Source: Murinocardiopsis flavida
GTDB taxonomy: Bacteria; Actinomycetota; Actinomycetes; Streptosporangiales; Streptosporangiaceae
Direction: 5' to 3'
Length of the DNA: 64,000 bases
Assembly: GCF_003014485.1 (NCBI RefSeq)
Contig: NZ_PYGA01000025.1
Coordinates: 1-64,000 of the forward strand
Below, piece after piece: positions 15,154-24,695 of this stretch; position 1 is the stretch's first letter; the number at the start of each line of letters is the position of its first letter. Under the pieces are notes generated by a model that was not told the origin of the DNA, did no database searches, and saw nothing but the letters and a program-made list of their open reading frames with translations. The translations under genes and the position numbers were made by a program.

Positions 15154-15201
15154 TAGTGCGCGCTGCTGACCGACCCGCGATCAATGAGGAGGGCGCCGCC
15201 C

Positions 15202-15762
15202 ATGACGGAGACCGATCGGACCGATCGCGTGGTCACCCCCTATGAGGGCGCGGCCGCACGCGCGTGGGACGACGCCGCGCCCATCGCGGCGCCGCTGTGC
15301 GTCCACGAGACCCGGGTGCGGCCCGAATGGCTCGACTACAACGGGCACATGAGCGAGTCGTGCTACCTGCTGGTCTTCGGCGACGACTCCGACGCCTTCT
15401 TCCGCTACATCGGTATCGACGAGGCGTACCGGGCGGCCGGGCATTCGCTGTACACGGTGGAGACGCACATCTTCAACCGCCGCGAGGCCGCCGCCGACGA
15501 CCCGCTGCGCCTCACGCTGCACCTGCTCGACCACGACCCCAAGCGGCTGCATGTGTTCCACGCCATGCACAACGCCGAGACCGGGGCGCTGCTCGCCACC
15601 GCCGAGCAGATGCTGCTGCACGTCGCGACCGGGTCGGGGCGCACGGCCCCGATGCCCGAGCCGTTGCAGCGGCGCCTCGCGGCGATCCGCGCGGCGCACG
15701 CTGCGCTGTCCGTGCCGGACGAGGTCGGCCACGTCATCGGGATCCCCCGCCGCGCGTCCTGA
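15202..15762 (+). CDS. Acyl-CoA thioesterase, betainyl-CoA/carnitine-pathway type (4HBT hot-dog fold)
   Basis: 186 residues. EWLDYNGHMSESCYLLVFGDDSD contains the hot-dog thioesterase signature DYNGHM, and HSLYTVETHIFN, LHVFHAMHN are the typical following strands. It resembles thioesterases of carnitine degradation (CdhB type). GAGGAGG precedes ATG 15202. First gene of the IclR-flanked operon; hydrolysis of betainyl- or carnitinyl-CoA is inferred from the linked caiD. Confidence 0.8.
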   Translation: MTETDRTDRVVTPYEGAAARAWDDAAPIAAPLCVHETRVRPEWLDYNGHMSESCYLLVFGDDSDAFFRYIGIDEAYRAAGHSLYTVETHIFNRREAAADDPLRLTLHLLDHDPKRLHVFHAMHNAETGALLATAEQMLLHVATGSGRTAPMPEPLQRRLAAIRAAHAALSVPDEVGHVIGIPRRAS

Positions 15763-15984
15763 CCCCCTCTGCCGCACGACCCGGCACGGACCCGTCCTCG
15801 TGGTTCGGACGACCCCGCCGTGGTCCCCGCCGTTGTCCCGGCCGCGCGTCCTGACACCGCGCGCGGCCGCCGCCCCGAGCGCCCGGGCACCGCCGCGCCT
15901 GCGTCCCCCGATTCCCGCCCGCGTCCCGCCACCCCCGCCGATTCCCGCCCCCGCGCCGCCGATCACGACCACAGGAGGCCCACG

Positions 15985-17145
15985 GTGCATTTCGCGCTGA
16001 CCGACGAGCAGCACATGATCGTCCAGACCGTCCGCGACTTCGTGACCGCAGAGCTGTACCCGCACGAGGACGAGGTCGAACGCCTCGACGACGTCCCGCC
16101 CGACCTGGCGCGATCCATCCGGCAGAAGGCCGTCGCGTCCGGCCTCTACGCCGCCAACATGCCCGCCGAGCTGGGCGGCGGCGGCCTCGACGGGCTGAGT
16201 ATGACCCTGGTCGAGCGCGAGCTCGGCAAGGCGTCCTTCGCCTTGCAGATGCTCGTGGCCCGGCCCGGCAACATCCTCCAGGCGTGCGAGGGTGAGCAGC
16301 GGGAGCGGTACCTCCTCCCCGCGGTGCGCGGCGAGCGCCACGACTGCCTCGCCATGACCGAGCCGGGCGCCGGTTCCGACATCCGGTCGATGAGCACCAC
16401 GGCCGTGCGCAGCGGCACCGACTACCTGATCAACGGGACCAAGCACTTCATCAGCCACGCCGACGCCGCCGACTTCGTGGTGCTCTTCGCCGCGACCGGC
16501 ACCGAGGACACGCCGCGCGGACCCAAGAAGCGCATCACCGCCTTCGTGGTCGACCTCGACGCGCCGGGGGTGACCGTGCGCCGCGGGTCGGCCGCCGTCT
16601 CGCACCGCGGCTACCACCAGTGCGAGATCGCGTTCGAGGACTGCCGGGTGCCCGAGGCCCAGCGCCTCGGCGCCGAAGGCGCCGGGTTCGACCTGATGTC
16701 GGAGTGGCTGGGCGCGAGCCGCCTCACCGTCGCGGCGACCAGCGTGGGCCGGGCCCGCCGGGTCCTCGACATGACCACGGAGTGGGCCGCCACCCGGGAG
16801 CAGTTCCAGCAGCCCGTTGGGCGCTTCCAGGGGGTCGGCTTCCAGCTCGCCGACTCCGTCACCGAACTGGAGGCCGCCGAGCTGCTCACGCTGCACGCGG
16901 CCTGGAAGCTCGACAACGGCGGCATGACCGACCGCGACGCGGCGATGGCGAAGCTCTACGCGTCGGAGGCGCTGGGCCGCATCACGGACCGGGCCGTGCA
17001 GATCTACGGCGGGATGGGGCTCTTGGCGGAACTGCCGATCGAGCGGTTCTGGCGCGACGCCCGGGTCGAGCGGATCTGGGACGGCACCAGCGAGATCCAG
17101 CGGCACATCATCGCGCGCTCCCTGCTGCGCCCCCTGGGCGCATGA
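15985..17145 (+). CDS. Acyl-CoA dehydrogenase (CaiA-like role proposed)
   Basis: 386 residues, the family's normal length. MTEPGAGSDIRSM (FAD-contacting), DYLINGTKHFISHAD, FxxPVGRFQGV and YGGMGLLAELPIERFWRDARVERIWDGTSEIQ are standard acyl-CoA dehydrogenase motifs. GTG 15985 was chosen because AGGAGG lies 7 bases upstream and homologues start MxFxLTDEQ. In this context oxidation of gamma-butyrobetainyl-CoA to crotonobetainyl-CoA is the best hypothesis. It overlaps the CoA ligase start by four bases (ATGA). The 222 bases upstream (15763-15984) are C-rich with no gene. Confidence 0.85.
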   Translation: MHFALTDEQHMIVQTVRDFVTAELYPHEDEVERLDDVPPDLARSIRQKAVASGLYAANMPAELGGGGLDGLSMTLVERELGKASFALQMLVARPGNILQACEGEQRERYLLPAVRGERHDCLAMTEPGAGSDIRSMSTTAVRSGTDYLINGTKHFISHADAADFVVLFAATGTEDTPRGPKKRITAFVVDLDAPGVTVRRGSAAVSHRGYHQCEIAFEDCRVPEAQRLGAEGAGFDLMSEWLGASRLTVAATSVGRARRVLDMTTEWAATREQFQQPVGRFQGVGFQLADSVTELEAAELLTLHAAWKLDNGGMTDRDAAMAKLYASEALGRITDRAVQIYGGMGLLAELPIERFWRDARVERIWDGTSEIQRHIIARSLLRPLGA

Positions 17146-19334
17146 GCGGGGGCGCGACGGCCGCGGCCGGCACCGCGGATCCCGCAGCCACTGCAAGCCC
17201 CGCAACCACGGCAACCCCGGCATCCCCCGCGGCCCGCCGGGCGGCGGGGATGCGCCGTCTGCTCGCCCCCCGCAGCATCGCGGTCGTGGGCGGCGACGCC
17301 GCCGCCGAGGCCATCCGGCAGTGCCGCCGGGTCGGCTACACCGGTGCGGTGTGGGCGGTGCACCCCCGCCGCGCGCACATCGAGGGCGTGCCCTGCGTCC
17401 CCACCGTCGATGACCTGCCCGGCGTGCCCGACGCCGTGCTCCTCGCGGTGCCCCCCGCTGCCGCGGTCGAGGTCGCCGGGCGGCTGTCCCGCATGGGCGC
17501 GGGCGGCATCGTCTGCCACACCTCCGGGTTCGCCGAAGCGGGGGAGGAGGGCGCCGGACTCCAGCGCGCCCTGCTCGACGCCGCCGGCGACACCGTGGTG
17601 ATCGGCCCCAACTGCAACGGCGTCCTGAACTACGCCGACGGCGTCGCCCTCTGGCCCGACCAGCACGGCGGCGAACGGGTCGACCGCGGGGTGGCGATCG
17701 TGTCGCAGAGCGGCAACATCGGCTTGAACTTCACCATGCAGCGCCGGTCGGTGCCGATCACGCACGTCGTCTCGCTCGGCAATGGGGCGGGCGCCGGCCT
17801 GGCCGACGTCGTGGACGCCCTGCTCGACGACGACCGGGTCGACGCGATCGGCCTGCACATCGAGGGCATCGGCGACGTCGCCGCCTTCTCCCGCGCCGCG
17901 CTGCGCGCACTGGAGCGCGGCGTGCCGCTGGCGGTGCTCAAGTCCGGCGCGTCGGAACTCGGCGCGCTCGCCACGCTCTCCCACACCAGCTCCCTCGCAG
18001 GCCCCGACGAACTGAGCGACGCGCTGTTCCGGCGGCTGGGCATCGCCCGGACACCGGACCCGGCCGGGCTGCTGGAGACGCTGAAACTCCTCGCCGTGCA
18101 CGGGGGGCTGGCAGCGGCCGAGGTCGCGTCGGCGAGCTGCTCCGGGGGAGAGGCGTCCCTGGTCGCCGACCTGGCCGAGCCGCGCGGCCTGCGCATGCCC
18201 CCGCTGCCGGGCCCGGTCCGCGAACGGCTCGAAGGGGTCCTCGGGCCGCACGTGCCGGTCGCCAACCCGCTCGACTACCACGGCTACATCTGGGGCGACC
18301 TCGCGGCGCAGACCGCCTGCTTCGCCGCCTTCCTCGGCAGCGGGGCGGCGGCGCACCTGCTGGTACTCGACTTCCCCCGTCCGGACGTCTGCGGCACCGA
18401 CCACTGGCGCACCACACTCGACGCGTTCATCGCCGCGCACCGCGCGCACCCCGTTCCGGCCTGCGTGGTCAGCTCCCTACCCGAGGGCCTCCCGGAGTCC
18501 GTCCGCGGGGAGATCCTCGCGGCGGGCATCGCCCCGATGCAGGGGATCGCGGAGTGCCTCGACGCCGTCCGCGCGGCCGCCGAGGTCGGCGCGGCGCAGC
18601 GGCGCGCCCGCGCGGGCCCGCCCGCGCCGCCCGGCCCGCCGCCCGCGGCAACGCGCCGCCTGGACGAGTGGGAGAGCAAGCGCGCGCTCGCGGCACACGG
18701 CGTCGCCGTCCCGGCGGGGCGGCTGGTCGCCGACGGCGCGGGCGCCGCAGCGGCGGCGGCCGACCTCGGCTACCCGGTCGTGCTCAAGGCGGTGGCGGCG
18801 CACCTGGCGCACAAGACCGAGGCCGGCGCGGTGCGGGTCGACCTGCGCACGCCCGACGACCTCGCCGCGGCACTGGAGTCGATGCGCGGGCTGGGCGACC
18901 GGTTCCTCGTCGAGCGGATGGCCGGCGGCGCGGTGGCGGAGCTGATCGTCGGCGTCCGGTGGGACCCGGTATTCGGGGCCGCCCTGACCGTCGGCGCGGG
19001 CGGGACGCTCGTTGAGCTGCTGCGCGACAGCGCGACCAGCCTGCTCCCGGTGTCGCGCGACGACATCGGGGCGTCGCTGCGCTCTTTGCGCACCTGGCCG
19101 CTGCTCGCCGGGTACCGGGGGCGGCCCGCGGGGGACGTGGCGGCGGCGGTCGAGGCGATCGCCGCTGTGGCGGACCTCGCCGCGGCGGACGCCGACCGCG
19201 TCACCGAGATCGATCTCAACCCGCTGCTGGTGCTGCCGGAGGGCGCGGTGGCGGTCGACGCGGTGGTCACCGTGCGCGCGGGCGCGGCGGTGGGAACGGC
19301 AGAACCGGACACGGAGGAGGACGGCGATGGGTGA
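17142..19334 (+). CDS. Acetate-CoA ligase-family protein (ADP-forming acyl-CoA synthetase)
   Basis: 730 residues, single-chain fusion. Ala/Thr-rich leader (1-30), CoA-binding domain (LLAPRSIAVVGGD, IGPNCNGVLNY), succinyl-CoA-ligase-like domains with VSQSGNIGLNF and the phospho-His region TLSHTSSLAG, and a C-terminal ATP-grasp domain (DEWESKRALAAHGV, GYPVVLKAVAAHLAHKTEAGAVRVDL, EIDLNPLLV). ATG overlaps the dehydrogenase stop; its own end overlaps caiD by eight bases. It probably activates carnitine, crotonobetaine or butyrobetaine, replacing the AMP-forming CaiC. Confidence 0.83.
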   Translation: MSGGATAAAGTADPAATASPATTATPASPAARRAAGMRRLLAPRSIAVVGGDAAAEAIRQCRRVGYTGAVWAVHPRRAHIEGVPCVPTVDDLPGVPDAVLLAVPPAAAVEVAGRLSRMGAGGIVCHTSGFAEAGEEGAGLQRALLDAAGDTVVIGPNCNGVLNYADGVALWPDQHGGERVDRGVAIVSQSGNIGLNFTMQRRSVPITHVVSLGNGAGAGLADVVDALLDDDRVDAIGLHIEGIGDVAAFSRAALRALERGVPLAVLKSGASELGALATLSHTSSLAGPDELSDALFRRLGIARTPDPAGLLETLKLLAVHGGLAAAEVASASCSGGEASLVADLAEPRGLRMPPLPGPVRERLEGVLGPHVPVANPLDYHGYIWGDLAAQTACFAAFLGSGAAAHLLVLDFPRPDVCGTDHWRTTLDAFIAAHRAHPVPACVVSSLPEGLPESVRGEILAAGIAPMQGIAECLDAVRAAAEVGAAQRRARAGPPAPPGPPPAATRRLDEWESKRALAAHGVAVPAGRLVADGAGAAAAAADLGYPVVLKAVAAHLAHKTEAGAVRVDLRTPDDLAAALESMRGLGDRFLVERMAGGAVAELIVGVRWDPVFGAALTVGAGGTLVELLRDSATSLLPVSRDDIGASLRSLRTWPLLAGYRGRPAGDVAAAVEAIAAVADLAAADADRVTEIDLNPLLVLPEGAVAVDAVVTVRAGAAVGTAEPDTEEDGDG

Positions 19335-20112
19335 CGCGGTACGCACAACGGCGGCGGACGGGGTGCTGACGATCACCCTCGACCGCCCCAAGGCGAACGC
19401 GATCGACGTGGCGACCAGCAGGGAGCTGTACGCGGCGTTCGCGCGGCTGCGCGACGACGACGCCCTGCGCGTCGCCGTCGTCACCGGGGCGGGCGAGCGC
19501 TTCTTCTCCGCGGGCTGGGACCTCAAGGCCGCGGCGGAGGGCGAGGCCATCGACGCCGACCACGGCCCGGGCGGCTTCGCCGGGCTCACGGAGTTCTTCG
19601 GCCTGCACAAGCCGGTGGTCGCGGCCGTCAACGGCCTTGCGCTCGGCGGCGGCTTCGAGCTCGCGCTCGCGGCCGACCTGATCGTCGCCGCCGACACGGC
19701 CGAGTTCGCGCTCACCGAGGTCACGATGGGGATGGTCGCCGACTCCGGCGGGGTGCTGCGGCTGCCGCGCCGCGTCCCGCGCGCCGTCGCCGCCGACATG
19801 CTCTTCACGGGACGCCGCATGGCGGCGGCGGAGGCGCACTGGCACGGCCTGGTGGCGGAGGTGGTGCCGCAGGGCGAGACGGCCGCTGCGGCGGCGCGGC
19901 TCGCCCGGACCATCGCCGACGCCGCGCCGCTGGCGGTCGCGGCCGTCAAGGAGATCCTCGACGCCACCGAGGGCGACGACCTGGCAGCGGCCTACCGGCG
20001 GCTGCGCGCCGGGGACCTGCCGCGCTACCGGGCCATGCTGGGGTCGGCCGACGCGGAGGAGGGGCCGCGGGCCTTCGCCGAGAAGCGCCCGCCGCGCTGG
20101 CAGGGGAGGTAG
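19327..20112 (+). CDS. caiD: Carnitinyl-CoA dehydratase / crotonobetainyl-CoA hydratase
   Basis: 261 residues, the same length as E. coli CaiD, and near-identical over diagnostic blocks: ITLDRPKANAID, FFSAGWDLKAAAEGEA, GPGGFAGLTE, GGGFELALAAD, DSGGVLRLP, TGRRM, AFAEKR-P-W-GR ending. Enoyl-CoA hydratase fold; interconverts crotonobetainyl-CoA and L-carnitinyl-CoA. It is the anchor for assigning the whole operon to carnitine/butyrobetaine metabolism. Last gene of the operon, followed by a strong bidirectional hairpin. Confidence 0.92.
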   Translation: MGDAVRTTAADGVLTITLDRPKANAIDVATSRELYAAFARLRDDDALRVAVVTGAGERFFSAGWDLKAAAEGEAIDADHGPGGFAGLTEFFGLHKPVVAAVNGLALGGGFELALAADLIVAADTAEFALTEVTMGMVADSGGVLRLPRRVPRAVAADMLFTGRRMAAAEAHWHGLVAEVVPQGETAAAAARLARTIADAAPLAVAAVKEILDATEGDDLAAAYRRLRAGDLPRYRAMLGSADAEEGPRAFAEKRPPRWQGR

Positions 20113-20193: not shown

Positions 20194-20757
20194 TCAGGCG
20201 CCCTGGGTCCAGGGCCGTTCGGGGTCGATCACCCGGCGAACCATCGGCTCGAAGACGTCGAGGGGCAGCGTGTCGTAGTCGGGGTCGAAGCTGGCCTGGT
20301 CGTACAGCTCGCAGAAGTCGACGCACGCCTGGTAGTGGGGGCTGTCGGCGAAGTGGTCGCGGGCGTTGCGGTCGTCCCCGTAGTGGTGGGCGTAGTAGTA
20401 CATCTGGAACGCGCCGTGGTGCTTGACGATCCAGTGCACCTGCTCGCTGACGTAGGGGCGCACGATGGCGGCCGCCATCTCGCTGTGGTTGTCGGGGGCC
20501 AGGTCGTCGCCGAGGTCGTGGAGCAGGGTTGCCACCACGTAGTCCTCGGGGCGGCCGTCGCGGTGCGCGCGGGTGGCGGCCTGGAGGCTGTGCTCGTAGC
20601 GGGTGACCTGGTAGCCGTCGAAGGAGTCCTTCAGCGACTCCAGCGCGGCGAGGAGCCGGTCGGGCAGCCCGCGCTTGATCTCGGTCTCCCGTTCGGCGAG
20701 GAAGAGGTAGTCCTCCTTGGTCCCCTCGGACATCTGCCGGAAGCTCACGGTCCGCAT
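20194..20757 (-). CDS. HD-domain protein, PhnZ-like diiron oxygenase candidate
   Basis: 187 residues. YEHSLQAATRAHRDG, VVATLLHDLGDDLAPDNHSE, IVKHHGAFQMYYY and CELYDQASFDPDYD supply H56, H80-D81, H91, H113/114 and D153, the ligand order of the HD diiron fold; the H56-to-H80 gap and YEHSLQ/LEHSLQ wording match PhnZ. The loop before H91 is shorter than in PhnZ, and its Tyr/Glu pair is not clearly conserved, so substrate and reaction are open (oxygenase or phosphohydrolase). AGGAGG precedes the ATG. Third gene of a leftward unit after the amidohydrolase and Rieske protein. Confidence 0.7.
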   Translation of the reverse strand: MRTVSFRQMSEGTKEDYLFLAERETEIKRGLPDRLLAALESLKDSFDGYQVTRYEHSLQAATRAHRDGRPEDYVVATLLHDLGDDLAPDNHSEMAAAIVRPYVSEQVHWIVKHHGAFQMYYYAHHYGDDRNARDHFADSPHYQACVDFCELYDQASFDPDYDTLPLDVFEPMVRRVIDPERPWTQGA

Positions 20758-20768
20758 GGTCGATCCTC

Positions 20769-21170
20769 CTAGGTGGTGGTGCGGCGCGGCGGCCGCAGGT
20801 CGATGACGACCGCGCCGTCGTCGATCCGGACGGGGTAGGAGCGCGCCCGGAGCCCCGGGTCGGCGAGGGACTGCCCGCTCTCGACGTCGAACTCCCAGCC
20901 GTGCCACGCGCAGCGCAGCACGCGCCCCTCGCGCTCGTACTCGAATCCGAAGAAGTCGTCGGCGGTGCGCGTGGTGCCTGTCAGCGGGCCTTCACACAGC
21001 GCGCCGCCGGCGTGCGGGCAGACGCCGTGCAGGGCGAAGAACCGGCCGTCGACGCGGAACAGCCCGATCCGCCGGCGGCCCACCTTGAGGAGCAGCCGCT
21101 CGCCGTCGCCGAGTTCGTCCTCCCGGCAGGCGGTCACCCGCCCGTCGGTGTCGCTGTCAAGCACCCGCAC
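20769..21170 (-). CDS. Rieske [2Fe-2S] ferredoxin
   Basis: 133 residues. CPH (C51, H53) and CAWHGWEFD (C87, H90) form a complete Rieske cluster site; the intervening loop is about 33 residues, longer than in ring-hydroxylase ferredoxins but usual in a common actinobacterial subfamily. GTG start at 21168-21170 overlaps the amidohydrolase by 14 bases. A likely electron carrier for an oxygenase; the only candidate partner in the operon is the HD protein. Confidence 0.85.
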   Translation of the reverse strand: MRVLDSDTDGRVTACREDELGDGERLLLKVGRRRIGLFRVDGRFFALHGVCPHAGGALCEGPLTGTTRTADDFFGFEYEREGRVLRCAWHGWEFDVESGQSLADPGLRARSYPVRIDDGAVVIDLRPPRRTTT

Positions 21171-22254
21171 CGGCGGCCTCCTCGCGTGGCCGGGCCGCGG
21201 GCAGCCGGTAGAGGGCGCGGGCGTTGCCGTCGAGGACGGCGTCGCGCCACTCGGCGGGGAAGCGGGTGGTGAACGGGTCGTCGAAGTCCCAGTGGGGGTA
21301 GTCGGAGGCGAACATGAGCATGTCGCGCCCGCCGATGTCGTCCAGCGCGGTCCACAGCGCGTCGGGGTTGCGGGGCCGCTCCAGCGGCTGGGTGGTGACG
21401 CGGACGAACTCGTGGGCGTACTCGCTGGGCAGCCGCTTGAGCCACGGCGTCTCCTTGCGCAGCGCCGTGTAGTCGGCGTCGAGTCGCCACAGGACGGCGG
21501 GCAGCCACGCGACCCCGCACTCGACCAGGACCAGCCGGGTGTGCGGGTAGCGCTCGAAGACGCCGTGCGCGAGGACGCTGGCGAGGTGGCCCATGCCCGT
21601 CTCGCACAGCATGGCGTGGGTCTCCCAGTAGAAGGTGGGCGGGCCCGTTCCGGTGGGGTTGGCGTTGACGCCGCCCTGGCCGCCGAGGTGCGCGGCGATC
21701 GGCAGCCGCATCTCCGATGCGGCCTCCCACATGGGGTGGAAGAAGGGGTCGCCGTAGGGGCGCTGCGAGCCCGACGTCACCACGACCTGCGACACGCTGG
21801 GGTGGCCGCCGACCCGGCGGATCTCGGCGGCGGCGCCCTCGGGGTCCTGCGGGGCGACGGTGATGGAGATCCGCAGCCGGTCGTCCAGCGGCGCCCAGGT
21901 GTCGAGGACCCAGTCGTTGTGGGCGCGCGCCAGCGCGCTCGCGTAGTAGGGGTTGGCGAGCGTGGACACCTCCATGCCCTCCTCGCCGAGCAGGATCGCG
22001 TAGTCCAGGTCGTAGCGGTCCAGCAGCTGCTCGCACATGTAGGCGTAGTCGGTGGCGGGGGCGCCGCCGCTCGGCGGGAGGGTGTCGTAGCGCATGTAGC
22101 CCTCGGGGTGCAGCCAGGCGCGGTGCCCGTGGGGGAACGAGTCGCGGCCGCCGGGCAGCTCGCCCCGGTCGAGGTAGTCGCGGAAGCTCCGATCCAGGTA
22201 GGGGAGGAGGACGCGGGCGGAGTCCCACCCGTTGTGCACGTCGCAGTCGATCAC
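21157..22254 (-). CDS. Amidohydrolase-2 family metal-dependent hydrolase/decarboxylase
   Basis: 365 residues. VIDCDVHNGWDSARVLLPYL (D-x-H variant of HxH), PIAAHLGGQG (His), and MLMFASDYPHWDFDDP (metal Asp with DYPHWD) mark the ACMSD/gamma-resorcylate decarboxylase-like branch. GTG 22252-22254 was chosen for AAGGAGG a few bases upstream; the longer upstream start would cross the operator. First gene of the IclR-divergent unit; the substrate is unknown. Confidence 0.82.
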   Translation of the reverse strand: MIDCDVHNGWDSARVLLPYLDRSFRDYLDRGELPGGRDSFPHGHRAWLHPEGYMRYDTLPPSGGAPATDYAYMCEQLLDRYDLDYAILLGEEGMEVSTLANPYYASALARAHNDWVLDTWAPLDDRLRISITVAPQDPEGAAAEIRRVGGHPSVSQVVVTSGSQRPYGDPFFHPMWEAASEMRLPIAAHLGGQGGVNANPTGTGPPTFYWETHAMLCETGMGHLASVLAHGVFERYPHTRLVLVECGVAWLPAVLWRLDADYTALRKETPWLKRLPSEYAHEFVRVTTQPLERPRNPDALWTALDDIGGRDMLMFASDYPHWDFDDPFTTRFPAEWRDAVLDGNARALYRLPAARPREEAAGAGA

Positions 22255-22271: not shown

Positions 22272-22306
22272 TGCTCAAATTGCACGGCAATGCTCATATA
22301 GCACGG
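22272..22306. promoter_or_regulatory. Tandem IclR operator candidates TGCTCAWATWGCACGG
   Basis: TGCTCAAATTGCACGG (22272-22287) and TGCTCATATAGCACGG (22291-22306) are direct repeats with a 19-bp period, 14 of 16 identical; the second also has TGCT-5-AGCA symmetry. They lie between the divergent amidohydrolase and iclR starts, immediately upstream of the amidohydrolase ribosome-binding site. Confidence 0.7.
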
Positions 22307-22350: not shown

Positions 22351-23094
22351 ATGAAACCGCTGGAAACCGTCGACCGGGCGCTTCAGGTCCTCCAGGTGTT
22401 CGACCAGGACCACCGCGAACTCGGCGTCGGCGAACTCGCCGCGAGCCTGGGGATCCACCACAGCAGCGCGTCCCGGCTCGCCGCGACCCTCGCACTGCGC
22501 GGGTTCCTGGAGCGCTCCGCCGACTCCGAGCGCTACCGCGTCGGCCCGGAGCTGCGCCGCCTCGGCCTCCTCGGCCTCACGAGCCCCGACCTGCTGAACG
22601 AGGCCCGGCCCATTATGGACGCGCTCGTGGAGCGCGTCGGCGAGACCGTCGCGCTCTCCCAGGTCGACGGCGACCGCAGCATCGACATCGCCGAGGCGCC
22701 CGGGCGGCACGTCATCGGCGCCCGGCAGTGGCTCGGCCGCCGCTTCCCCCTGCACGCCACCTCCGACGGCAAGGTCTTCCTCGCCTTCGCCGTCGGGCGC
22801 CCGGCAGCGCTGGAGACGGAGCTGGAGCGGTACACCGAGTGGACGATCACCGACCCCAGCGTCCTCGCCAAGGCGCTCGACCGGGTGCGCGAACGCGGCT
22901 GGGCCTATGCGGGCTCGGAGTTCGAGGAGGGCCTCGCGGGGGTCGCGGCGCCCGTCTTCGACGCCGCCGGGCGCTGCGTCGCCGCACTCAACATCACCGG
23001 CCCCGACTACCGCATGCCCAAGGACCCCGACGAGCTCGGGACGGCCTGCCGCGCGGCGGCCGACCGCATCACCACCCGCCTCGGCGGCCCTTGA
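22351..23094 (+). CDS. IclR-family transcriptional regulator
   Basis: 247 residues. HTH in VDRALQVLQVFDQDHRELGVGELAASLGIHHSSASRLAATLALRGFLER, then an effector domain with HATSDGKVFLAF and GSEFEEGLAGVAAPVFDAAG. Divergent from the amidohydrolase/Rieske/HD operon across a 96-bp gap with twin direct repeats, so it is its probable regulator. It is distinct in sequence and operator from the IclR at 14143. Confidence 0.87.
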   Translation: MKPLETVDRALQVLQVFDQDHRELGVGELAASLGIHHSSASRLAATLALRGFLERSADSERYRVGPELRRLGLLGLTSPDLLNEARPIMDALVERVGETVALSQVDGDRSIDIAEAPGRHVIGARQWLGRRFPLHATSDGKVFLAFAVGRPAALETELERYTEWTITDPSVLAKALDRVRERGWAYAGSEFEEGLAGVAAPVFDAAGRCVAALNITGPDYRMPKDPDELGTACRAAADRITTRLGGP

Positions 23095-23228: not shown

Positions 23229-23423
23229 TCAGTCGGAAAGTGTGATCGCCCGCGAGGGGCACAGCCGCACGGCGGCCCGCGCCGCCTCGGCGTCCTCCCC
23301 GTCGGGCTCTCGTTCCAGGACGACGACGCGGCCGTCATCGTCGTCCTGTGTGAAGACGGCGGGGGCGGTCAGCGCGCACATCCCCGCCCCCGCGCACGCC
23401 TCGCGGTCGGTGCCGATCCTCAC
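23229..23423 (-). CDS. 3Fe-4S ferredoxin, P450 redox partner
   Basis: 64 residues. CAGAGMC and a later CPSRAI give three cluster cysteines (C10, C16, C55), the signature of actinobacterial 3Fe-4S ferredoxins. GTG start overlaps the P450 stop (GTGA), so it is translationally coupled and presumably donates electrons to that P450. Acidic mid-region ([16 protein letters not shown]) is typical. Confidence 0.88.
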
Positions 23424-24667
23424 GACGGCGCCGCCCAGGTGACGGGGAGCCGCCGGACCCCGTAGACCGCCGAGGTCTCGCGGAGGGGGACCTCGGCGGC
23501 GGGGACCGCCAGCCGCAGCCCGGGGAACCGCTCGAACAGTGCGCGGTAGGCGATGCGCATCTCGACGCGGGCGAGCTGCTGGCCCAGGCACTGGTGGACG
23601 CCGTGCCCGAACGCGAGGTGGCGGCGGGCCCCCGTCCGGTCGAGCCGGAGGTCGGCCGAGTCGGGGAACATGTCGGGATCGCGGTTGACCGCGGGCAGCG
23701 ACACCATCACCGTCTCGCCCTTGCGGACGAGTCGGCCGTCCAGTTCGACGTCCTCCAGCGCGGCCCGGGTGGGCGCGCCGAGGTGCAGGATCGACAGGTA
23801 GCGCAGCAGTTCCTCGACGGCGTTCGCCGCCAGTGCGTCGTCGGCGCGGAACGCGGCGAGCTGCCGCGGGTGCCGGAGGAGCGCGAAGGTCCCCAGCGCC
23901 AGCATGTTCGCCGTGGTCTCATGCCCGGCCACGAGCAGGATCAGCGCGATGTTGGTCAGCTCCTCGTCGCTGAGTTCGCCCTCTGCGACGAGGCCGCCGA
24001 GCAGGTCGTCGCCCGGCGCCGTGCGCGTGCGCCGCACCAGTCCGGCCAGGTAGTCGGTGAGCGTGCCCAACGCGGCCATGGTCTGCTGCTCGGTGCTCTC
24101 CAGGTCGACCATGACACTGCTCTGCTCCTCGAACAGCGTGTGATCGGAGTAGGGGACGCCGAGGAGTTCGCAGATCACCAGGGAGGGGATCGGCAGCGCG
24201 AACGCCGACACCAGGTCGGTCGAGGTCCCGGCCCGCTCCATGGCGTCGAGGCGGTCGGCGGTGATCGCGGCGATCCGCGGCTCCAGCCGGCGCATGCGGT
24301 GCACGGTGAACCGGCCGGTGAGCATCCGCCGATAGCGGGTGTGGTCGGGCGGGTCCATGTTGATGAACCAGCCGGGCGCCGCCGGCTGCCGCGCGCCTCC
24401 GGGCCGGGGAACCGTCGCGAAGACGGTGTGCTTGACGTCGGGCCGGTTGCTGAACCGCGGGTCCGCCAGGACGGCGCGCGCCGTCGCGTGGTTCGTCACC
24501 AGCCAGCCGACGTGCCCGTCGAAGTACGCCATGCGGGTGAGGGGTTCCGCGGTGCGCAGCCGGTCGAGCTCGGGCGGGGGGTCGAAGGGGCAGCCCGGAG
24601 CGCGCCCGGTCGGCAGGGCGACGGGTTCGGAACCGGCCCCGGTGGTCCTCGCAGGGTTTCTGGCCAT
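23420..24667 (-). CDS. Cytochrome P450
   Basis: 415 residues. I-helix AGHETT (247-252), ExxR at E286-R289, and heme loop FGHGVHQC with the thiolate Cys360. It resembles the CYP105/CYP107-type bacterial P450s. ATG 24665-24667. Operon with its ferredoxin; twin palindromes in the promoter suggest control by the divergent TetR. No biosynthetic genes surround it, so a detoxification or xenobiotic role is as likely as secondary metabolism. Confidence 0.9.
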
Positions 24668-24695
24668 GACGGCGCCTCTCGAACGTGCGGACAAT

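What the first reader, a model, noticed from the sequence alone, without database searches (positions are those of the whole stretch)
20194..22254. PhnZ-like HD protein, Rieske ferredoxin and amidohydrolase in one unit beside a carnitine operon
The HD protein keeps the diiron ligand order (H56, H80-D81, H91, H113/114, D153) and the EHSLQ wording of PhnZ, whose relatives include an oxygenase acting on a quaternary-ammonium phosphonate. Here it is coupled to a Rieske electron carrier and a decarboxylase-like amidohydrolase, next to genes for another quaternary amine. An uncharacterised oxidative pathway is plausible.
Basis: partly seen in the sequence, partly recalled or inferred. Interest (0 to 1): 0.65.

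Follow-up and report, generated by a model that had tools for sequence, protein, structure and literature searches.

The report
Two oxygenases and ferredoxin, one operon
A bacterium, probably an actinobacterium, carries a small self-regulated gene unit that appears to combine two unrelated metal-dependent oxygenases and an electron carrier, probably to hydroxylate a small molecule and then cut it; the cutting enzyme belongs to a large unstudied family also found in ocean bacteria.

Summary
The three genes are real and form one minus-strand operon (ARO 21157-22254, Rieske 20769-21170, HD 20194-20757), divergent from an IclR gene (22351-23094). The HD protein has the oxygenase diiron ligand set and its model matches PhnZ, TmpB and MIOX well above any other solved structure. 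It belongs to a separate, uncharacterised family: all 119 full-length sequences aligned (window included) keep the six ligands, none has the PhnZ/TmpB YxxE glutamate, and the phosphonate-site histidine and lysine are replaced. The 'decarboxylase-like amidohydrolase' is an amidohydrolase-related dinuclear oxygenase (ARO, AibH2/SfbO type) with all six metal ligands; the Rieske protein is most likely its electron donor. A tandem operator found once per genome sits between operon and regulator here and in two Saccharopolyspora species. Best reading: the ARO hydroxylates, then the HD oxygenase cleaves, as in PhnY*/PhnZ and TmpA/TmpB but with an ARO as hydroxylase. Elsewhere this HD family sits beside TmpA/BBOX-like hydroxylases (10 of 120 loci), MttB-like genes, or purF and a glutamate-cysteine ligase in SAR11. 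The neighbouring carnitine-like operon is not linked in three comparison genomes. The substrate is unknown; a quaternary or N-methylated amine is only suggested.

The parts
20194..20757 (-). HD-domain diiron oxygenase (PhnZ/TmpB/MIOX fold, separate uncharacterised family), 187 aa
   Evidence: ligands H56 H80 D81 H91 H114 D153 in 119 of 119; AlphaFold model pLDDT 94.3; VIA-align Z 17.1 PhnZ, 16.3 TmpB, 12.0 MIOX, next entry 8.0
20769..21170 (-). small Rieske [2Fe-2S] ferredoxin, AibG-like role (electron donor of the ARO, inferred), 133 aa
   Evidence: C51xH53 and C87xxH90; a Rieske gene near the ARO in 34 of 34 other ARO loci fetched, some overlapping
21157..22254 (-). amidohydrolase-related dinuclear oxygenase (ARO, PF04909), 365 aa
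   Evidence: Best PDB matches are the four ARO structures 8sm7 (2.7e-86), 8sm6 SfbO (2.6e-75), 8sm8, 8sm9, then AibH2 6m1w_B (1.4e-53); D5 H7 H189 E245 D318 H321 D323 match AibH2 D25 H27 H211 E265 D337 H340 D342
22272..22304 (-). tandem operator: two 14-mers GTGCNATNTNNGCA separated by 5 bases (19-base period), between the divergent starts
   Evidence: Conserved in both Saccharopolyspora loci; exactly one site (up to 3 mismatches) in each of three genomes, 0 in G002, 0 for the reversed control in all four; 0 in 100 shuffles of the window. Binding by the IclR protein is inferred
22351..23094 (+). IclR-family regulator, divergent from the operon
   Evidence: BhcR 151.5 bits, cut-off 350; PcaR/PcaU 151.1, cut-off 284.75; 68-70% identical regulator at the same place in L054 and L055; start

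Best explanation
The unit is a two-step oxidative cleavage cassette. Step 1 (inferred from family): electrons from a general NAD(P)H reductase pass through the Rieske ferredoxin P0002 to P0003, an amidohydrolase-fold dinuclear (Mn/Fe or Fe/Fe) monooxygenase, which hydroxylates a carbon of a small substrate (R-CH2-X to R-CH(OH)-X). Step 2 (inferred from family): P0001, an HD-domain mixed-valent diiron oxygenase, binds the new alcohol, uses a second O2 and cleaves the C-X bond to R-COO(-) and HO-X. This is the logic of PhnY*/PhnZ and TmpA/TmpB with the 2-oxoglutarate hydroxylase replaced by an ARO. X is probably not a phosphonate; a carboxylate or another carbon is more likely (inferred). The divergent IclR protein probably controls this operon through one tandem operator, so the substrate or an intermediate is probably its effector. 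Shown here: the gene unit, the ligand sets, the fold, the family separation and the conserved operator sequence. Inferred: the chemistry, the order of steps, the regulation and the substrate. My estimates: HD is a diiron oxygenase 0.85; P0003/P0002 is an ARO monooxygenase system 0.9; the three genes serve one pathway 0.9; sequential hydroxylation then cleavage 0.5; substrate a quaternary or N-methylated amine 0.3.
For: ARO identity; the same ARO-plus-small-Rieske signature was used to find multicomponent AROs in PMC10811679, has 90% co-occurrence among 555 AibH2-like proteins in PMC10401708 (passages), and is the AibH1H2-AibG-AibF chain of PMC7782822 (passages). HD identity. One unit: gene overlap and spacing, conserved order in two Saccharopolyspora loci, one operator per genome. 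Hydroxylase pairing as a theme of this HD family: a TmpA/BBOX-like 2OG hydroxylase directly upstream on the same strand in 10 of 120 HD loci; of these ten proteins the best NCBIfam model is TmpA in six and gamma-butyrobetaine dioxygenase in four, all under the cut-offs of 400 and 414.75 (best scores 185-340 bits). Only 3 further loci have such a gene elsewhere in the fetched stretch (L090, L156, L159). On the tree this label needs 5 changes, at least 3 forced by well-supported branches. In L163 the gene 64 bases upstream is a PtmU3/DitZ-like PF04909 protein, and in L154 the gene 66 bases upstream is a P450.
Against: HD and an AibH2-type ARO are together in only 3 genomes (one clade of the HD tree, 100/99), and 110 of 120 HD loci have no match to the two TmpA/BBOX-like queries directly upstream, so HD does not need such a linked hydroxylase. 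Other contexts (TPP enzyme and Zn-ADH; purF and glutamate-cysteine ligase; MttB-like and FAD/GcvT-type genes; AMP-binding CoA ligases; LytB; mandelate racemase-like) do not obviously fit hydroxylate-then-cleave. A close ARO relative (72%) in G002 has no HD match within a 19.9 kb stretch, although G002 has a 58% HD relative on another contig, so the ARO can occur without it. The ARO-Rieske module without HD exists elsewhere, so HD may serve another step. No assay of this HD family was seen in my literature searches, and no substrate was identified. The AlphaFold model carries no metals and I had no coordinates to inspect the pocket.
Confidence: 0.5

Rival explanations
1. Same pathway, non-consecutive or reversed steps: the HD oxygenase acts first or several steps away from the ARO, for example cleaving an alpha-hydroxy acid or alpha-hydroxy ketone made by other enzymes, while the ARO and Rieske proteins oxidise another position or release an N-alkyl group.
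For: The ARO-Rieske module, in several loci with an IclR gene, exists without HD, so HD is an addition. In another clade HD sits behind a TPP enzyme and, in some loci, before a Zn-dependent alcohol dehydrogenase, a context for alpha-hydroxy carbonyl compounds. SfbO started N-dealkylation of surrogate substrates (PMC10811679).
Against: The tandem hydroxylase-HD arrangement recurs with 2OG hydroxylases, and the PhnZ-type oxygenases described in PMC8177086 and PMC10574752 (passages) follow a hydroxylase.
Confidence: 0.28
2. The Rieske ferredoxin also, or mainly, serves the HD oxygenase, keeping its diiron centre in the mixed-valent state or donating electrons for a true monooxygenation.
For: The Rieske gene lies between the ARO and HD genes, 11 bases from HD. 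A mixed-valent cofactor must first be reached by one-electron reduction of the diferric state (general knowledge).
Against: A Rieske gene accompanies AROs without HD in all 34 other ARO loci fetched. Of 120 HD loci outside the window only 3 match P0002 at E 1e-8: L054, L055, and L146 on the opposite strand 3.8 kb away. Known HD oxygenases regenerate the mixed-valent state without an external reductant (PMC8177086).
Confidence: 0.12
3. The unit is part of the adjacent carnitine-like pathway (15184-20112), for example cleaving carnitine or gamma-butyrobetaine to glycine betaine.
For: CaiD-like hydratase 343 bits and a thioesterase like the C-terminal domain of carnitine 3-dehydrogenase 175 bits, both below cut-offs of 500 and 592. 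A 61-67% identical thioesterase with ACAD, CoA synthetase and IclR neighbours also occurs in S. soli, S. rosea and G002, so both sets co-occur.
Against: In S. rosea the two sets are about 1 Mb apart and in S. soli and G002 on different contigs; each set has its own IclR gene; the operator occurs once, only at the HD-ARO unit; the two operons are convergent.
Confidence: 0.08
4. The HD protein is a phosphohydrolase or another hydrolase.
For: Pfam HD domain 29 bits; most known HD proteins are phosphohydrolases (PMC8177086).
Against: Six-ligand oxygenase motif in 119 of 119, though PMC11203657 (passages) notes that this motif is not an absolutely reliable marker; PhnZ, TmpB and MIOX hold ranks 1-7 with Z 17.1-11.1 and the next entry has 8.0.
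Confidence: 0.04

Closest known systems
TmpA/TmpB and PhnY*/PhnZ oxidative C-P cleavage
   Same: HD oxygenase with the H..HD..H..H..D diiron set and the same fold; ten relatives of P0001 sit directly behind TmpA/BBOX-like hydroxylases; hydroxylase plus HD oxygenase logic.
   Different: Here the linked hydroxylase is an ARO with a Rieske donor; no YxxE loop; the PhnZ H62 and K108 positions are D or K and Q or E; a segment that most of the Phn-HD-like comparison sequences carry between the fourth histidine and the last aspartate ligand is missing; NCBIfam scores 25.9-41.1 bits against cut-offs of 214.6-300.
AibH1H2-AibG-AibF (2-aminoisobutyrate hydroxylase) and SfbO
   Same: P0003 has all six AibH2 metal ligands plus the seventh acidic residue; a small Rieske gene directly follows.
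   Different: No AibH1-like second subunit in the operon; SfbO's sulfate-binding R232 and R235 align with H213 and L216 of P0003 (alignment); an HD oxygenase gene is added, which I did not see named as a partner in the parts of the three ARO papers that I read.
PtmU3 / DitZ
   Same: PF04909 fold with a dinuclear hydroxylase (PtmU3); a DitZ/PtmU3-like gene lies 64 bases upstream of an HD relative in L163.
   Different: P0003 is far closer to 8sm7/SfbO/AibH2 (293-185 bits) than to PtmU3 (66 bits) or DitZ (31 bits).
myo-inositol oxygenase (MIOX)
   Same: Fold (Z 12.0) and diiron ligand pattern; 14 of 119 relatives have HDxGK.
   Different: P0001 has HDLGD, is about 70 residues shorter than the 258-residue chain 2huo and 14% identical in the aligned part.

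Membership tests
PhnZ/TmpB phosphonate HD oxygenases (TIGR03276 and relatives) | Diiron ligand set H..HD..H..H..D | tested here: met
   H56, H80, D81, H91, H114, D153 in 119 of 119 full-length family sequences, window included
PhnZ/TmpB phosphonate HD oxygenases (TIGR03276 and relatives) | Fold | tested here: met
   Z 17.1 (PhnZ 4n71_A, 153 aligned, rmsd 3.4) and 16.3 (TmpB 6npa_C, 156 aligned, rmsd 3.6)
PhnZ/TmpB phosphonate HD oxygenases (TIGR03276 and relatives) | YxxE substrate-gating loop (PMC8177086) | tested here: not met
   P0001 has F46 and Y49 there; position 49 is Y in 100, F in 17, L in 1, M in 1 and never E among 119. The six comparison sequences: E 3, D 2, F 1
PhnZ/TmpB phosphonate HD oxygenases (TIGR03276 and relatives) | Substrate-site His62 and Lys108 of PhnZ (roles recalled, primary paper not held) | tested here: not met
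   Position 84 is D in 105 and K in 14; position 118 is Q in 112 and E in 7 of 119. The six comparison sequences: H in 4, K in 4
PhnZ/TmpB phosphonate HD oxygenases (TIGR03276 and relatives) | Score over the NCBIfam cut-off | tested here: not met
   41.1 (TmpB, cut-off 300), 40.8 (Phn-HD, 214.6), 25.9 (hydroxymethylphosphonate dioxygenase, 300) bits
[quoted passage not shown]
   Needs purified protein
AROs (amidohydrolase-related dinuclear oxygenases) | Six metal ligands of AibH2 | tested here: met
   D5 H7 H189 E245 D318 H321; 38 of 43 ARO-like segments, some partial or overlapping, keep all six
AROs (amidohydrolase-related dinuclear oxygenases) | Acidic residue two after the last His, linked to the dinuclear site (PMC7782822) | tested here: met
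   D323
AROs (amidohydrolase-related dinuclear oxygenases) | Small Rieske gene in the same transcription unit | tested here: met
   P0002 overlaps P0003 by 14 bases
AROs (amidohydrolase-related dinuclear oxygenases) | Monooxygenase activity with Mn/Fe or Fe2 | not testable with these tools
   Needs purified protein
PF04909 decarboxylases (5-carboxyvanillate, gamma-resorcylate) | Closest relatedness to these enzymes | tested here: not met
   71.6 bits (4icm) and 48.1 bits (2dvt) against 293.2 bits for ARO 8sm7
MIOX | HDxGK lysine (role recalled) and close sequence similarity | tested here: not met
   P0001 has HDLGD; 14% identity over 140 aligned residues

The most novel reading that the evidence does not exclude
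A new oxidative C-C (not C-P) cleavage pathway built from two unrelated dinuclear oxygenases, an ARO/Rieske hydroxylase and an HD diiron oxygenase of a new family. The same HD family, widespread in SAR11 and other marine bacteria, would oxidise hydroxylated quaternary or N-methylated amines or their carboxylate analogues rather than phosphonates, so that part of what marine surveys count as phnZ would be this enzyme.
Probability: 0.3. Interest if true: 0.82.

Novelty: new variant of a known kind. Interest (0 to 1): 0.62.

Why it matters
PMC10401708 (passages) lists 555 uncharacterised AibH2-like proteins, and PMC10811679 could not infer natural substrates for its four AROs; a unit where the next enzyme and the regulator are also known makes a substrate findable. 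PMC8177086 (2020, passages) names three HD-domain oxygenases (MIOX, PhnZ, TmpB); this family is large, conserved and, in the papers I saw, untested. Passages of PMC9381506 report phnZ as the dominant marine 2-AEP strategy with 45% of marine phnZ sequences from Pelagibacterales, while PMC8316502 found the 2-AEP type at very few sites. In the 20 SAR11 genomes tested here, chosen because they carry this HD gene and mostly partial, the only TIGR03276 match is this gene, at 36-40 bits against a cut-off of 214.6. If such genes were counted as phnZ, the marine phosphonate budget would change. I could not check which sequences those authors used.

Tried and rejected
Linking the unit to the carnitine-like operon: rejected as evidence because synteny is lost. 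Decarboxylase reading of P0003: rejected. PhnZ/TmpB membership: rejected on three tested features. AlphaFold of P0003 from one sequence gave pLDDT 43.5 and was not used. In the VIA-align list no structure other than PhnZ, TmpB and MIOX stood above Z 8.0; this is a second look at Foldseek's hits only. Searching the order (249 genomes, E 1e-60) and the family (341 genomes, E 1e-120) for the ARO found no second HD-ARO unit; most loci had flanks of only about 1.5 kb. Neighbour proteins were called with a crude GC-period gene finder (245 proteins in 66 loci); 51 selected neighbours, a few of them called otherwise, were scanned, so the neighbour survey is a sample; one of them (L167) matched no Pfam family at E 1e-5. 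The gene name 'DMGDH-like' used in my scripts is recalled; NCBIfam gives sarcosine oxidase alpha and GcvT-type matches below cut-offs, and MttB-like is 350 bits, cut-off 525. Papers on HD-ARO pairs or on this HD family: none seen in searches of the held library, by listings and the passages read; the primary PhnZ and TmpB papers are not held. Rows dropped before counting: 10 weak or partial HD hits (L015-L018, L020, L024, L050-L053) were left out of the 119, and six of these (L018, L020, L050-L053) served as the Phn-HD-like comparison set, in which L018 is atypical; L019 and L021-L023 gave no hit in the pooled search; hits without a locus were not aligned. Subgroup 2 was defined by K at position 84, so that count is by construction. 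The tree's outgroup rows have long branches, and its label counts ignore 40 rows in no group. The TIGR03276 search also rang, below cut-off, in 5 of 14 well-known control genomes, so such weak matches are not specific by themselves.
Full report
What is there. The three genes of the finding are intact ORFs on the minus strand: P0003 (21157-22254), P0002 (20769-21170) and P0001 (20194-20757), read in that order. P0003 and P0002 overlap by 14 bases and 11 bases separate P0002 from P0001; each start has a GGAGG-like site in front of it. An IclR-family gene (22351-23094, plus strand) diverges from the operon. The carnitine-like genes (15184-20112) run convergently toward the unit.

One unit. The same four genes in the same order occur in Saccharopolyspora soli (L054) and S. 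rosea (L055), at 80 and 75% identity for HD, 67-68% for Rieske, 82-83% for the ARO and 68-70% for the IclR. Between the divergent starts the three loci carry two 14-mers GTGCNATNTNNGCA at a 19-base period. Searched with up to 3 mismatches, this tandem site occurs exactly once in each of the three genomes, not at all in G002, and not at all for the reversed control; shuffles of the window gave none. The IclR protein therefore probably controls this operon and little else (inference). The unit was seen in these three genomes only.

The HD protein. P0001 hits TmpB (6npa, 4e-7) and PhnZ (9e-5) in the PDB by sequence. Its AlphaFold model, from 33 sequences of the window and of fetched loci, has pLDDT 94.3. 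PhnZ (Z 17.1), TmpB (16.3) and MIOX (12.0, 11.1) fill the first seven places of the fold comparison and the next entry has Z 8.0. In an alignment of 119 full-length sequences (80, 39 including the window; many SAR11 rows are near copies), the six diiron ligands are invariant. Three features separate this family from PhnZ/TmpB: the YxxE loop described in PMC8177086 is absent (position 49 is Y in 100, F in 17, L in 1 and M in 1; never E); the PhnZ H62 position is D (105) or K (14); the PhnZ K108 position is Q (112) or E (7) (the roles of H62 and K108 are recalled). NCBIfam scores are 41.1, 40.8 and 25.9 bits against cut-offs of 300, 214.6 and 300. So it looks built like an HD oxygenase, but it fails the tests for the phosphonate families.

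The amidohydrolase. P0003's best PDB matches are the four structures 8sm7, 8sm6 (SfbO), 8sm8 and 8sm9 (2.7e-86 to 6.7e-57), then the Aib hydroxylase chains (1.4e-53 to 6.4e-44); decarboxylases follow at 5e-19 or worse. PMC10811679 (parts 1 and 2 of 3 of the text read) names these four structures as amidohydrolase-related dinuclear oxygenases, found by the signature seen here: a PF04909 gene beside a small Rieske gene. AibH2's ligands (D25, H27, H211, E265, D337, H340; PMC7782822 passages) map to D5, H7, H189, E245, D318 and H321, and the acidic residue D342 to D323. SfbO's sulfate-binding R232 and R235 align with H213 and L216, so the substrate group probably differs. Elsewhere, 34 of 34 fetched ARO loci (18, 16; some overlap) have a Rieske gene nearby, in 6 of them on the opposite strand, and none matches this HD within the fetched flanks of about 1.5 kb. 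Several also have an IclR gene. HD is therefore an addition to an existing ARO-Rieske module.

The HD family elsewhere. In the genome samples, 23 of 297 genomes of the order and 34 of 396 of the phylum have a match at E 0.001, own genome included; the weakest matches include Phn-HD-like proteins. Of 120 HD loci with flanks (80 plus 40), 40 have purF and a glutamate-cysteine ligase gene, in SAR11 (one of each scanned: purF 494 bits, over its cut-off of 350; the ligase 384 bits, cut-off 463); 14 have MttB-like and/or FAD/GcvT-type genes, 13 of them upstream on the same strand; 10 have a TmpA/BBOX-like 2OG hydroxylase directly upstream on the same strand (L107, L116, L131-L133, L135, L149-L151, L153) and 3 more have one elsewhere in the stretch. 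For the ten upstream proteins the best NCBIfam model is TmpA in L131, L133, L149, L150, L151 and L153 and gamma-butyrobetaine dioxygenase in L107, L116, L132 and L135, often with nearly equal scores and all under the cut-offs. On the tree this label needs five changes, at least three forced by well-supported branches, so the pairing is spread over distant branches. Further neighbours are a PtmU3/DitZ-like PF04909 gene (L163), a P450 (L154), a PhyH protein and a Rieske oxygenase behind HD in L107 (a similar oxygenase in L132), a DddP-like gene (L088, 444 bits, cut-off 600), AMP-binding ligases (L137, L155), class II aldolase-like genes (L063, L078, L102), LytB-like genes (L171, L172), and in the HDxGK subgroup a TPP enzyme in front (scanned in L140, L142, L145) and a Zn-dependent alcohol dehydrogenase behind (scanned in L143, L148). 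Not all contexts fit one chemistry.

Most likely mechanism. ARO plus Rieske hydroxylates, then the HD oxygenase cleaves at the new alcohol. The order is borrowed from PhnY*/PhnZ and TmpA/TmpB (PMC8177086, PMC10574752 passages) and from the recurrent hydroxylase neighbours. It is not shown for this unit. By analogy with PhnZ (R-CH(OH)-PO3 to R-COO(-) and phosphate), loss of the phosphonate-site residues suggests a carboxylate or carbon leaving group; this is a guess. The carnitine neighbourhood does not help: its thioesterase relatives are elsewhere in the three comparison genomes, although all four genomes have both an HD relative and such a thioesterase. In G002 the HD relative, the ARO relative and the thioesterase are on three different contigs.

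Marine annotation. PMC9381506 (passages) states that Pelagibacterales make up 45% of marine phnZ sequences and that phnZ is the dominant marine 2-AEP strategy; PMC8316502 (passages) found the 2-AEP type at very few sites; PMC10574752 (passages) notes the disagreement. In 20 SAR11 genomes chosen because they carry this HD gene, the TIGR03276 model finds one match each, at 36-40 bits (cut-off 214.6), and each match lies inside this HD gene (20 of 20). The same search rang below cut-off in 5 of 14 control genomes. These SAR11 genomes are mostly partial and were selected, so this does not measure SAR11 as a whole, and I could not see which sequences the surveys counted.

Verdict. The new points are the ARO identity of P0003, the Rieske protein as its probable donor, the separate HD family, and the single-operator unit.

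Noticed in passing
L064, L070 and 38 further SAR11 loci (40 of 120): Conserved purF-HD-glutamate-cysteine ligase gene order around this HD family in SAR11; in the loci looked at, HD follows purF with a gap of 0-3 bases. The role of the gene there is unexplained.
   Followed up: partly
L163:6698-7966 (+), HD from about 8030: A PtmU3/DitZ-like PF04909 protein (269 bits to DitZ 8uyr, 120 to PtmU3) lies 64 bases upstream of an HD relative: a second, separate PF04909-HD pairing.
   Followed up: partly
L140-L145 and L148: HDxGK subgroup: an ORF of 554-567 aa lies 0-15 bases upstream of HD (289 in L148), a TPP-dependent enzyme in the three scanned (L140, L142, L145); a Zn-dependent alcohol dehydrogenase follows HD in the two scanned (L143, L148).
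   Followed up: partly
L107:723-4471 and L132:1719-5337: TmpA/BBOX-like hydroxylase, HD, a 267-aa protein (PhyH in L107) and a Rieske oxygenase alpha subunit (best model GbcA at 159-162 bits, cut-off 670) in one direction, from two different assemblies.
   Followed up: partly
L088:1568-2761 (+): A DddP-like DMSP lyase relative (444 bits, cut-off 600) lies 92 bases downstream of HD.
   Followed up: no
window 23229-24694 (-): A ferredoxin-like ORF and a cytochrome P450 lie beyond the IclR gene; the P450 has no match at E 1e-8 in the fetched flanks of the two Saccharopolyspora units, so it is probably unrelated to the unit.
   Followed up: partly
window 17142-19334 (+): The CoA synthetase of the carnitine-like operon best matches acetate--CoA ligase type models (249 bits, cut-off 1200), not a CaiC-type ligase.
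   Followed up: no
L177, L190, L208, L211: Some ARO loci carry two tandem ARO-like genes; in these four one copy has H in place of D323, perhaps an AibH1-like partner subunit.
   Followed up: partly
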